The position numbers and the translations under genes are program-made. Source: Pyrinomonadaceae bacterium (GTDB lineage: Bacteria > Acidobacteriota > Blastocatellia > Pyrinomonadales > Pyrinomonadaceae). From it: a stretch of DNA of 18,057 nucleotides. Location of the stretch: the NCBI GenBank assembly GCA_013812565.1, contig JACCTF010000056.1, positions 1 to 18,057 of the forward strand, written 5' to 3'. Shown in pieces: positions 1 through 8,836 of this stretch (the first letter of the stretch is position 1; each line of letters begins with the position of its first letter). The notes under the pieces were generated by a model. That model searched no databases. It worked only from the letters and a program-made list of their open reading frames with translations, and was not told the origin of the DNA.

Positions 1-270
1 CTCTTGCGCTCCCGCAATCTGATGCGCGCTGCCGATCCAACCTGACAGCGTGCCAGCTCGCAACAACAATTCAGCTGCCGCCTTGTAGTCTAATCCATCA
101 AGCTGCGGACGCTCACCGATTTGCCACCACTGCTCAAGCTCTTGGCAGGCTGCTTCATAGTTGCCGCCTTCCTCCTGCTCGCGGGCGCGTACGCAGCCCA
201 CCTGCACTTGTTTGCTCAAGCTAAACGTTGAATCCGCTGTATGTTTAACTCGTTGAGTGTCTAAGCCCAA
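1..270 (-). CDS. TPR-like helical protein, N-terminal 90 residues (runs off left edge)
   Basis: An open leftward frame of 90 codons reaches the left edge without a stop. I place the start at TTG 270-268 because a purine-rich AGAGAGG lies 8 nt upstream and an in-frame TAG lies further upstream. The protein begins MLGLDTQRVKHTADSTFSL and continues with Glu/Ala-rich amphipathic helices: around residues 36-52 (REQEEGGNYEAACQELEQ), then WWQIGERPQLDGLDYKAAAELLL. The pattern resembles tetratricopeptide-type helical pairs, and no signal peptide is visible, so a cytoplasmic protein is likely. No helix-turn-helix is recognisable in the visible N-terminus. The function is unknown. Its divergent neighbour is a tiny secreted repeat protein, and the two share a regulatory gap. 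The family name TPR-like is inferred from helix pattern only. Confidence 0.6.
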   Translation of the reverse strand, partial: MGLDTQRVKHTADSTFSLSKQVQVGCVRAREQEEGGNYEAACQELEQWWQIGERPQLDGLDYKAAAELLLRAGTLSGWIGSAHQIAGAQE

Positions 271-304
271 AACACTTTCCTCTCTTACGTACTATTTTGT
301 GTGT

Positions 305-338
305 TAAACATGATAAATTATGTTTACAGATCGTAAAC
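305..338. promoter_or_regulatory. Nested inverted repeats, candidate operator
   Basis: Two perfect inverted repeats share a central arm: TAAACAT (305-311) with ATGTTTA (320-326), and GTTTAC (322-327) with GTAAAC (333-338, 5-nt spacer). They cover the -35 elements of both divergent promoters and the -10 of the leftward one. This is a typical layout for a repressor or dual regulator of a divergent pair. The regulator itself is not identified. Confidence 0.5.
310..337 (-). promoter_or_regulatory. Leftward sigma70-like promoter for the TPR-like gene
   Basis: Reading leftward, TTTACG (337-332) and TATCAT (315-310) are separated by 16 nt, matching 4/6 and 5/6 of the sigma70 consensus. Transcription would start near 303, about 33 nt before the TTG start. 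It overlaps the rightward promoter and the inverted repeats, so the two directions probably compete. Confidence 0.45.
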
Positions 339-351
339 GTAGTGCTATAGT
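323..351 (+). promoter_or_regulatory. Rightward extended -10 promoter for the GDISGD protein
   Basis: TTTACA (323-328) and TATAGT (346-351) are separated by exactly 17 nt, and the -10 is preceded by TGC (343-345), the extended -10 feature. The predicted start near 358 coincides with a small hairpin TGCTTG-tgg-CAAGCA (357-371) at the 5' end of the transcript. The leader before the ATG would be about 155 nt. The -35 hexamer lies inside the inverted repeats described separately. Confidence 0.6.
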
Positions 352-512
352 GTTTTTGCTTGTGGCAAGCATGTTAATGCAAGATCAAGCTTCATTACAA
401 TCCTCGCAACATCCTCAGATCTTTCATTAACCCCTCCAAACATCAACATTCTTCAGCCAAAAACCATTACGTCTTAAATCCACATATCCATAATATCCTA
501 AGGAGATCACCC

Positions 513-740
513 ATGAAAAAGTTTAAACAGTTTGCAACCATGACCGTCTTAACGTTTGCACTCGCTTCTTCAACCTTTGCTGGCGATATATCTGGCGACA
601 GAACTAGAAGTGGAGATATATCGGGTGATAGATCCAGTTCCGCGTATAGCTATAAAGCAGGCGATATTTCCGGTGATGGAATCAGTCCCGTGACCACAAC
701 GTGGCTGAGCATTCTACAAAGCATGCTGTCATTCGTTTAG
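513..740 (+). CDS. Small secreted protein with three GDISGD repeats
   Basis: This is a 75-residue protein with a strong ribosome binding site (AAGGAG, 8 nt before the ATG). Residues 1-23 form a classical Sec signal peptide: basic MKKFKQ, hydrophobic core, and probable cleavage after STFA. The mature part has about 52 residues and contains three copies of GDISGD: residues 24-29, 34-39 (both followed by Arg) and 50-55 (followed by Gly). Between copies are short Ser/Arg/Tyr-rich linkers. The last 17 residues (SPVTTTWLSILQSMLSF region) could form a hydrophobic or amphipathic helix. There is no cysteine and no known domain that I recognise. It is divergent from a TPR-like gene and has its own promoter. 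Possible roles, all inferred, are a precursor of a repeated peptide signal, a surface or matrix peptide, or an Asp/Gly-rich ion-binding peptide. That the gene is real is well supported; its function is unknown. Confidence 0.8.
   Translation: MKKFKQFATMTVLTFALASSTFAGDISGDRTRSGDISGDRSSSAYSYKAGDISGDGISPVTTTWLSILQSMLSFV
582..680 (+). repeat. Three 21-nt coding repeats (GDISGD R/G)
   Basis: Copies lie at 582-602, 612-632 and 660-680. Copies 1 and 2 encode identical heptapeptides but differ at four third-codon positions (GGC/GGA, TCT/TCG, GGC/GGT, GAC/GAT). Copy 3 adds ATT and TCC, again synonymous, with Arg changed to Gly only at the seventh residue. Conservation is therefore at the protein level, not the DNA level. 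Confidence 0.85.
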
Positions 741-916: not shown

Positions 917-1523
917 GGCTCGAATCGCAACTCACATGCCATTAGCGTTTGCAGTAGATCCCCTCAGCTCATTAGCGAACCTATTAGACCTCATCACTTG
1001 CTAACAAAGCGCGATCCAGGAGTCTAAACTCATCAGCTTCATTGCAATAAAATAATAGGCTGTAAAGTTCTTATTGCTACCGACTCCAAATCAGTCTGCA
1101 CTAGCTACAAGCGCCGGAGTTCTCCGTTGCGCCCACAATTATCAGCATTCACACCTTTACCTTTGTCGCTTGCTGAAAAGCCTCACATTTTCGCTCTAGC
1201 TTGTTGCTCACGTGCTTAAAGGTAGAGTTAAACAGTGTGATCAGAGTTATGGGTCGTAACGATGTTACAGACTTTTGGTTGTAATAATTGTCACGTCCTG
1301 TGTAAAGCTTACCCGACAATTCTCATCCCAAATCCACCGGGCGTCATAATAAACACCGAAAGGCGCTTTCTGAAGCAACTGGTTCAATGGCACAGAATGT
1401 GCTTGTGTAACTACGGCAAGCACGAAAAACTTAACGTGACCCCGCCGCCTACTCACCTCTGAGCGTGGCCCGCCGCTGCGCCAATCGCCTGCCGAGCGTT
1501 CCTACTAATGTGCCATCCTTTCC

Positions 1524-8017: not shown

Positions 8018-8836
8018 ATGAAGTTGCTCCTCATCATACTTATTTCGATATGCCCTCTGCTGTGTCAAGTGGGTTGTACGCGGAGAAGTAATCAACATGC
8101 ACAGAATGCAGTACGGACAGATACCACTTATTCCCTTAAGGGAAGTAACCTTGTCTCGAAAGAGCAAAGCAACTCGGAAAATTTGAGCGAAGCTCAAAGG
8201 TATTTCAAACAGGGTCTTGATCTTTACAATAAGAACCACGACAGGGAAGCGATTGAAGCTTTCCTGCAAGCCATCCGTATCAATCCGGATTATGCGGAAG
8301 CGTACTTCAGACTGGGTCTGGCTTATGCGGTGGTTGATCAGAAAGAAGAAGCGAAAGAGGCACACCGGAAAGCGATTGAAGCATATAAGAAGTTCGTTCG
8401 TTCCAATCCGAATGACGCAGCGGCTCACTTTAATATGGGCGAAGCATATAGCAGGCTGAGCCAGTATGACGAAGCGGTTAAGGCATATAAGCAAGCACTT
8501 CGCCTGCAACCGGATGACAGCGACATGTACTATGAACTAGGCGTCGCGCATATCAAGTTGGCCCAGTACCAGGAAGCAGTAGCGGCACTTGAAAAAGCGA
8601 GCGAGATTGATGCAGATAATCACCGTGCGAGTGACGAACTGGAGAAAGCAAGGCAGGGACTTAAACGCCGCGAGGCTATTCTGAAGCAGCAAGAAGAAGC
8701 CTTGCGAAGGCAGGAAGAGGAAGCTTTGCAACAGCAAAATTCGAACCTTGCCTCTACCAGCCCAAGCCCTGCGGCAAGTCCAAGTCCGCTGATGAGTCCG
8801 AAGCCTTCAGCGACCCCGATCCGGCAAGCTCCATAA
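8018..8836 (+). CDS. TPR-repeat lipoprotein
   Basis: This 272-residue protein has AAGGAG 8 nt before the ATG. Residues 1-19 are a hydrophobic signal sequence ending in CQVGC, so Cys20 is a probable lipidation site; the -3 Gln is atypical for a lipobox. Four tetratricopeptide repeats occupy about 57-90, 91-130, 133-166 and 167-200. Typical landmarks are A-x-x-A-F-x-x-A-I-x-x-N-P (78-90), HFNMGEAY (137-144) and YYELGVAH (171-178). Residues 205-242 form a Glu/Gln/Arg-rich coiled coil, and the tail 248-272 is Ser/Pro-rich (SPSPAASPSP). It is probably a membrane-anchored periplasmic scaffold for protein-protein contacts. It follows the isomerase gene by 92 nt but has no obvious functional link to it. 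Confidence 0.85.
   Translation: MKLLLIILISICPLLCQVGCTRRSNQHAQNAVRTDTTYSLKGSNLVSKEQSNSENLSEAQRYFKQGLDLYNKNHDREAIEAFLQAIRINPDYAEAYFRLGLAYAVVDQKEEAKEAHRKAIEAYKKFVRSNPNDAAAHFNMGEAYSRLSQYDEAVKAYKQALRLQPDDSDMYYELGVAHIKLAQYQEAVAALEKASEIDADNHRASDELEKARQGLKRREAILKQQEEALRRQEEEALQQQNSNLASTSPSPAASPSPLMSPKPSATPIRQAP

What the first reader, a model, noticed from the sequence alone, without database searches (positions are those of the whole stretch)
1..740. Divergent pair: TPR-like protein and tiny secreted repeat peptide, a possible peptide-signalling module
A cytoplasmic-looking helical TPR-like gene (start 270, leftward) stands back to back with a 75-residue Sec-exported protein with three GDISGD units and a hydrophobic C-terminal helix. 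In Firmicutes RRNPP systems a TPR receptor sits next to a gene for an exported pro-peptide; a similar layout in a probable acidobacterium would be new. Against this: no HTH is visible at the receptor's N-terminus, so it could at best be Rap-like, and most of the TPR protein is outside the window.
Basis: partly seen in the sequence, partly recalled or inferred. Interest (0 to 1): 0.7.

Follow-up and report, generated by a model that had tools for sequence, protein, structure and literature searches.

The report
Peptide-sensing gene pairs in soil bacteria
In a family of soil Acidobacteria, genes for a sensor protein and for a small exported peptide with a repeated six-residue word sit back to back again and again, and the sensor's binding groove changes in step with the peptide word, which points to a previously undescribed bacterial peptide-signalling system.

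Summary
The divergent pair at 1-740 is real and belongs to a large family. In Pyrinomonadaceae (Acidobacteriota), 97 of 105 non-identical TPR homologues have a divergent exported small ORF, against 7 of 170 control genes; 136 of 138 strong peptide hits lie divergent to a TPR gene. Receptors join one ~425-residue TPR domain to different C-terminal outputs: Fis-type HTH, HTH plus receiver, sigma-54 AAA+, histidine kinase, or GGDEF-EAL. Peptides carry a hexapeptide unit, often repeated; identical repeats differ in 181 of 361 codons. Groove residue 212 covaries with unit residue 2 (basic with D/E/N, otherwise not) in 110 of 117 pairs; 12 independent tree pairs give 7.8 same, 0 opposite, 4.2 uninformative; held-out pairs agree in 22 of 26. 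Best reading: the peptide is the ligand of its neighbour, an RRNPP-like system outside Bacillota, but not an RRNPP member. Binding, export, processing, re-import and cell-to-cell use are inferred. The window's own receptor is cut at the contig end, so its output and residue 212 are unknown.

The parts
1..270 (-). N-terminal ~90 residues of the TPR receptor gene, cut by the contig end; output domain and groove residues 130 and 212 lie outside
   Evidence: ORF; 50% identical to the N-terminus of the paralogue in G000:C747; aligned as far as reference residue 99
271..512 (.). divergent intergenic region, 242 nt; holds a TGCTTG-N3-CAAGCA palindrome but not the GCAAG-N4-CTTGC element of many homologues
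   Evidence: sequence; palindrome listed; best match to GCAAG-N4-CTTGC has 3 mismatches
500..505 (+). Shine-Dalgarno-like AAGGAG of the peptide gene
   Evidence: sequence; 90 of 97 homologues have such a motif
513..740 (+). propeptide gene, 75 residues
   Evidence: profile hit E 4.9e-15 (the profile contains it); matches the C747 peptide at E 1.3e-5
513..581 (+). signal peptide, cleavage expected after residue 23 (STFA|GD)
   Evidence: sequence; same pattern in the peptide alignment; no signal-peptide predictor was available
582..599 (+). unit 1, GDISGD
   Evidence: sequence
612..629 (+). unit 2, GDISGD, codons differ from unit 1
   Evidence: sequence
660..677 (+). unit 3, GDISGD, codons differ from units 1 and 2
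   Evidence: sequence
702..737 (+). hydrophobic C-terminal segment (WLSILQSMLSFV), similar in kind across the family, role unknown
   Evidence: no covariation of the C-terminus with the receptor groove

Best explanation
The pair is a self-contained peptide-sensing cassette. The small gene makes a propeptide that is exported by Sec; cleavage by signal peptidase exposes the first copy of a hexapeptide unit, and further proteolysis frees the other copies. The unit, or a slightly longer peptide around it, binds in the concave groove of the TPR domain encoded by the neighbouring gene, with unit residue 2 meeting groove residue 212 (repeat 5) and unit residues 4-6 meeting repeats 3-5. Binding switches the attached output: transcription (Fis-type HTH, HTH plus receiver, sigma-54 AAA+), phosphotransfer (histidine kinase plus receiver) or c-di-GMP turnover (GGDEF-EAL). 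Shown computationally: the linked pair, the modular outputs, repeats held at the amino-acid level, and receptor-unit covariation. Inferred: direct binding, export, processing, return to the cytoplasm through an oligopeptide permease, and use between cells. For the window's own pair the receptor class is unknown.
For: Linkage: 97 of 105 against 7 of 170 controls; 136 of 138 peptide hits divergent to a TPR gene (126, 8, 2 to a TPR start cut by a contig end); over 99 family genomes 43 hold both, 1 TPR only, 0 peptide only, 55 neither, at TPR E<=1e-50 and peptide E<=1e-8 (lists read off; 25 more genomes have a weak peptide hit between 1e-8 and 1e-3). Unit: identical repeats differ in 181 of 361 codons, 0.50 against 0.65 if codons were drawn independently; the first unit recurs in its own peptide better than in others (top 5% in 50 of 91). 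Covariation: residue 212 basic with D/E/N at unit residue 2 in 110 of 117 pairs; 12 independent tree pairs give 7.8 same, 0 opposite, 4.2 no difference, p 0.008; K with D/N and R with E in 57 of 73, independent pairs 7.6 against 0.8 of 9, p 0.04; best of 770 tests on 358 columns; held-out 16 of 18 basic against 2 of 8 others. Columns at TPR positions 2,5,6,9,12,13, which HOP TPRs use to bind ligands (PMC1261162, passages), covary with the unit more than other columns (p 1.6e-4), not with the linker (0.94) or C-terminus (0.35). Asn252 and Asn253 (95% and 100% of 91) sit at positions 5 and 6. Model pLDDT 95. SBP_bac_5 proteins in 4 of 4 genomes.
Against: No binding, secretion or phenotype was measured. 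Eight of 105 receptors lack a detected peptide; one of these has a GTG-start peptide (L099) and one a profile hit upstream (G057). Three of 29 held-out receptors lack one by script; two of these have profile hits. Two of 138 peptides have no TPR gene. 49 of 97 peptides show no repeat significant at 0.05. Seven of 117 pairs break the 212 code, and R goes with D/N in 13 of 42. The link of residue 130 to unit residue 6 (89 of 107) rests on too few independent pairs. The last residues of the signal peptide also covary weakly with the groove (p 0.02). The top columns for unit residues 1 and 3 are not groove positions. A way across the outer membrane is unexplained. SBP_bac_5 is also found in 11 of 14 control genomes, so it is only permissive. 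The groove tests treat columns as independent.
Confidence: 0.74

Rival explanations
1. Autoregulated effector: the small exported protein is itself the effector (membrane-active or surface peptide), and the TPR protein is its local regulator or binds the precursor before export, so the loop is internal to one cell.
For: Divergent regulator-target layout is common (general knowledge). A palindrome GCAAG-N4-CTTGC lies 79-142 nt before the peptide start in HTH-type and sigma-54-type loci (HTH: 19 of 39 within 2 mismatches against 2.4 in shuffles; sigma-54: 4 of 13 exact against 0). The hydrophobic C-terminus recurs.
Against: GGDEF-EAL and histidine-kinase receptors show no DNA-binding domain in Pfam yet keep the pair. 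The covarying element is the unit, not the C-terminus. Binding of the precursor in the same cell would still be ligand binding, so this differs mainly in where the peptide acts.
Confidence: 0.15
2. Envelope or secretion-stress sensing: the TPR protein binds unexported or wrongly processed propeptide as a readout of Sec or protease capacity.
For: The residues just before the unit also covary weakly with the groove. TPR superhelices of this fold bind linear peptides (matches).
Against: Does not predict locus-specific units, repeats kept identical, or several receptors per genome (up to 8 listed) with units of their own.
Confidence: 0.06
3. Two conserved neighbours without interaction; the covariation is a relic of shared descent.
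For: Both genes descend together in the family.
Against: Overall TPR identity hardly tracks unit similarity (Spearman 0.03); one groove column stands far out; the test on independent pairs allows for descent; the substitutions are charge-compatible.
Confidence: 0.03
4. The small ORF is a RiPP precursor and the TPR protein a biosynthetic partner.
For: Multi-core precursors look alike (general knowledge); weak similarity of one TPR domain to a RiPP TPR protein (NF041717, E 5.9e-5, far under its cut-off).
Against: No neighbour cluster recurs in more than 13 of 95 loci (the printed clusters were looked at by eye, not run against a family library).
Confidence: 0.02

Closest known systems
RRNPP / RRNPPA quorum-sensing systems of Bacillota (Rap-Phr, NprR-NprX, PlcR-PapR, AimR)
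   Same: Cytoplasmic TPR receptor beside a small Sec-exported propeptide (the five-criterion signature of PMC10075063, passages); tandem copies of the pheromone in some propeptides (PMC11343458, abstract); a salt bridge between a groove residue and peptide residue 2 plus a conserved groove Asn (RapJ Asp192-PhrC Arg2, Asn225; PMC3601965, passages).
   Different: Acidobacteriota (diderm, general knowledge); C-terminal exchangeable outputs (HTH_8, receiver, sigma-54 AAA+, kinase, GGDEF-EAL) instead of N-terminal HTH or three-helix bundle (PMC9765709, passages); TPR sequence nearer to kinesin light chain than to Rap or NprR; unit follows the signal-peptide site; extra hydrophobic C-terminus.
Kinesin light chain / LGN-type TPR superhelices
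   Same: Best natural matches by sequence (KLC1, E 5e-12; designed TPRs score higher) and by fold (LGN); peptide-binding grooves.
   Different: Eukaryotic cargo and polarity adaptors; no functional relation proposed.
AfsR and MalT-type signal-responsive regulators with TPR
   Same: TPR sensor joined to a transcription output; weak sequence similarity (AfsR E 2e-6; TPR_MalT in 30 of 78).
   Different: Different output domains; no adjacent propeptide known to me (recalled, not searched).

Membership tests
RRNPP(A) | small (10-100 aa) propeptide adjacent to the receptor gene | tested here: met
   50-94 aa, at 97 of 105 receptors
RRNPP(A) | propeptide exported by Sec | tested here: inconclusive
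   signal-peptide-like N-terminus by a hydropathy rule and a recurring A|G site; no SignalP run
RRNPP(A) | receptor about 250-500 aa | tested here: not met
   complete receptors listed are mostly 484-890 aa because of the attached outputs; only the short HTH forms come near
RRNPP(A) | TPR domain that binds the peptide | tested here: inconclusive
   TPR_12 in 78 of 78, model pLDDT 95, groove-unit covariation; binding not measured
RRNPP(A) | N-terminal HTH, or three-helix bundle (Rap) | tested here: not met
   in the 10 complete receptors scanned one by one the outputs are C-terminal and no N-terminal HTH is reported
RRNPP(A) | homology to RRNPP receptors above general TPR similarity | tested here: not met
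   RapI E 2.7e-4, NprR 7e-4, behind KLC1 5e-12; RapF at rank 44 by fold
RRNPP(A) | processed peptide re-imported by an oligopeptide permease | not testable with these tools
   SBP_bac_5 proteins exist in 4 of 4 genomes and 11 of 14 controls, which is only permissive
Sigma-54 enhancer-binding proteins (subset of receptors) | sigma-54 AAA+ domain and HTH_8 | tested here: met
   Sigma54_activat in 13 of 78 receptors; both domains in L010, L068 and L080

The most novel reading that the evidence does not exclude
Pyrinomonadaceae carry an independently evolved peptide-pheromone language: an expanding family of divergent receptor-propeptide cassettes in diderm bacteria, in which one TPR reader is plugged into transcription, phosphorelay or c-di-GMP outputs and each cassette uses its own hexapeptide word, read through a simple charge code at groove residue 212.
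Probability: 0.6. Interest if true: 0.95.

Novelty: new variant of a known kind. Interest (0 to 1): 0.88.

Why it matters
Intracellular TPR receptors with adjacent exported propeptides are described for Gram-positive Bacillota (PMC10075063, passages). A natural set of over a hundred receptor-peptide pairs with readable covariation in Acidobacteriota would open peptide communication in an abundant and poorly cultivated soil phylum. It gives ready synthetic ligands to test, including for the isolate Pyrinomonas methylaliphatogenes K22, and offers a modular peptide-responsive sensor that nature has already joined to five kinds of output. The RapJ-PhrC structure paper says that too few Rap-Phr pairs were known to find covarying residues (PMC3601965, passages); here there are 117.

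Tried and rejected
Promoter of the peptide gene: I expected -24/-12 boxes in the sigma-54 class and did not find them (1 of 13 at score 12 or more); instead TGGCAC-N5-TTG boxes appeared in 3 of 4 kinase loci (the fourth just under the score) and in the single GGDEF locus, which I leave unexplained. GCAAG-N4-CTTGC is not enriched in HTH-receiver loci (3 of 31 within 2 mismatches against 2.2 in shuffles), and ACCAG-N6-CTGGT (7 of 31 of these) may be shared descent or an RNA hairpin. Residue 130 with unit residue 6, and W130 with G at unit residue 4, were not separable from descent. A search for a third conserved gene gave only locally shared neighbours. Whether the kinase-type TPR fragment at the end of contig C248 (L100) is the other half of the window's gene: it starts at reference residue 120 and the window ends at 99, and it has Lys212 as GDISGD would predict, but the nearest relatives of the two fragments differ and this is unproven. 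Literature: no paper with RRNPP and Acidobacteri, none with Pyrinomonadaceae and tetratricopeptide, none holding 5 of 6 terms; the listings (5 papers; 10; 20 of 82 shown; 20 of 34 shown; 15 of 178 shown) name nothing on this by title and start of abstract. Only open-licence PMC papers were searched.

Full report
What is in the window. The window is contig G000:C60, entire, of a 5.34 Mb draft genome. The leftward frame from 270 is the first ~90 residues of a TPR protein, cut at the contig end, and the ORF at 513-740 encodes 75 residues: a signal-peptide-like start, three GDISGD units and a hydrophobic end. A Pfam scan finds no family in the TPR fragment and only FG-GAP_3 at E 0.4 in the peptide.

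Relatives. A search of 40 genomes, the own one included, with the peptide found one paralogue (C747) and one homologue (G014), both divergent from a TPR gene. The units differ between loci (GDISGD, GDIGVG, GDLGTD) but are the same within these three peptides. The complete receptors share a ~425-residue TPR domain and differ in output: sigma-54 AAA+ plus HTH_8 in C747, GGDEF plus EAL in G014. Loci from named records are mostly titled Pyrinomonadaceae, Blastocatellia or Acidobacteria bacterium, and include the isolate Pyrinomonas methylaliphatogenes K22, whose contig has the length of the contig in G022, a genome of the window's family; hence Pyrinomonadaceae. Of 99 genomes of the family, 58 have a TPR match at E<=1e-20; at E<=1e-40, 44 of 162 genomes of the class match, all in the window's own family. 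In a sample of 199 genomes of the phylum the peptide profile matches 5 at E<=1e-7, the own one included, all in that family.

Linkage with control. I fetched 80 loci in four calls and 80 named ones (the best 80 of 123 found), many of them the same places, and reduced them, with the window, L010 and L011, to 108 TPR genes with N-terminus and non-identical sequence. Of these, 105 have at least 450 nt upstream. A rule for a divergent ORF of 45-100 residues with a positive start, hydrophobic core, cleavage-like site and hydrophobic C-terminus is met by 97 of 105, and by 7 of 170 other genes of at least 200 residues in the same loci; without the C-terminus condition it is 97 of 105 against 20 of 170 (the rule was changed, which gave 93 of 105 against 9 of 164 and missed the window's own peptide). 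The peptides start a median 147 nt from the receptor start. Shine-Dalgarno-like motifs precede 90 of 97. A profile of 66 peptides, searched over 99 whole genomes, gave a capped list of which I took the 138 hits down to about 1e-8: 126 are divergent to a listed TPR hit, eight more to an unlisted one, two face a TPR start that the contig end cuts off (L206; L212), and two (L207, L208) have no TPR gene. The profile was built from TPR-linked peptides, but it was free to find unlinked ones. Co-occurrence over 99 genomes is 43 both, 1 TPR only, 0 peptide only, 55 neither. Some receptors have two or three tandem propeptide genes (L214, L215, L216).

Modular receptor. In 78 complete receptors that have a peptide, TPR_12 matches 78, HTH_8 61, receiver 34, sigma-54 AAA+ 13; by motif 4 are histidine kinases and 1 is GGDEF-EAL (Pfam confirms L118, L121 and L011). 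Propeptides of the kinase and GGDEF classes hold 3-5 unit copies, those of the DNA-binding classes mostly 1-2 and at most 4. In 66 propeptides the best Pfam match is 9.4e-5 (3 of 66, a plant cysteine-rich domain), and 3 of 3 tested have no NCBIfam hit.

The unit is held at the amino-acid level. In 38 peptides with exact repeats of five or more residues, 181 of 361 compared codons differ, 0.50 against 0.65 if codons were drawn independently. Most of the repeats are therefore not fresh duplications. Against its own shuffles the best repeat is significant at 0.05 in 48 of 97 peptides. The first unit recurs within its own peptide better than in other peptides (top 5% in 44 of 97; re-registered, 50 of 91).

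Receptor-peptide covariation. In 91 discovery pairs I correlated, column by column, receptor similarity with unit similarity after removing overall TPR identity. Column 212 led (0.42, next 0.29). The table reads: K with D or N, R with E or sometimes D, other residues with non-acidic ones. Coded as basic against D/E/N this holds in 88 of 91 discovery pairs (54 of 55 basic, 34 of 36 other). In 26 held-out pairs from other loci it holds in 22 (16 of 18 basic carry D/E/N, 2 of 8 non-basic do; Fisher 0.003). The discovery set chose the column, so the held-out test and the scan over columns matter: over 770 codings of 358 columns, 212 is best both by raw agreement (94%, next other column 75%) and by pairs independent on the tree (7.8 same, 0 opposite; next other column a difference of 4.4) (this scan uses all 117 pairs). 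The independent-pair test on well-supported branches has 12 pairs, 4.2 of them uninformative, median p 0.008; with the two traits exchanged 9 pairs give 7.6 against 0.0, median p 0.008, range to 0.07; K/R against D,N/E gives 7.6 against 0.8, median p 0.04, range to 0.07. One held-out receptor with Glu212 has a unit with Lys (GKVDCP, L235). Residue 212 is position 12 of its TPR; HOP TPRs use positions 2, 5, 6, 9, 12 and 13 for ligands (PMC1261162, passages; the register onto these positions is mine, from the model's helices). Columns at these positions covary with the unit (p 1.6e-4), less with the signal-peptide end (0.02), and not with the linker (0.94) or the C-terminus (0.35). By unit residue the top columns are 212 for residue 2, 123 for 4, 205 for 5 and 130 for 6, all groove positions; those for residues 1 and 3 are not. 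Unit residues 2 and 4-6 thus appear to be read by repeats 3 to 5.

Regulation. A palindrome GCAAG-N4-CTTGC lies before the peptide gene in HTH-type loci (5 of 39 exact, 19 within two mismatches against 2.4 in shuffles) and sigma-54-type loci (4 of 13 exact); it is not enriched in HTH-receiver loci (3 of 31 within two mismatches against 2.2), nor seen within one mismatch in kinase (0 of 4) or GGDEF loci (0 of 1). I infer that it is the operator of some receptors, which would make the loop autoregulatory. The window lacks it.

Comparison and limits. The arrangement works like RRNPP systems and even recalls RapJ-PhrC, where a groove Asp pairs with peptide residue 2 and a conserved Asn holds the backbone (PMC3601965, passages). 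But it is not a member: outputs are C-terminal, most receptors are larger, and sequence similarity is nearer to kinesin light chains. Direct binding, export, processing, re-import and communication between cells are not shown. SBP_bac_5 proteins in 4 of 4 genomes make re-import possible. The hydrophobic C-terminus and the passage over the outer membrane are unexplained.

Noticed in passing
G000:C747:5965-7248 (L010, 2-1537, -) and G000:C747:3360-4859 (-): Two SBP_bac_5 (oligopeptide-binding type) hits lie on the same contig, about 3-7 kb beyond the 3' end of the paralogous receptor gene.
   Followed up: partly
L118, L119, L120, L121 and L011, 119-141 nt before the peptide start: TGGCAC-N5-TTG boxes (CGGCAC in L121) resembling sigma-54 -24/-12 sites occur in kinase and GGDEF loci rather than in the sigma-54-receptor loci.
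   Followed up: no
L214 (G009:C17), L215 (G009:C22), L216 (G043:C33): Tandem arrays of two or three different propeptide genes in front of one receptor.
   Followed up: partly
L208 3109-3267: Orphan propeptide homologue with no TPR gene found in 6.5 kb, next to kinase-like and receiver/HD-like genes named by eye.
   Followed up: no
window 1436-1497 and 1023-1068: Short stretches recur elsewhere in the genome at 85-87% identity (C631, C298; C321, C964), so they look like dispersed repeats.
   Followed up: no
L235 and L234 (G006): Receptors with Glu212 pair with units beginning GK or GQ, a possible charge swap worth a direct test.
   Followed up: partly
window 8018-8836 (+): A second TPR-like ORF with a lipoprotein-like N-terminus, by eye; not compared with the receptor family.
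   Followed up: no
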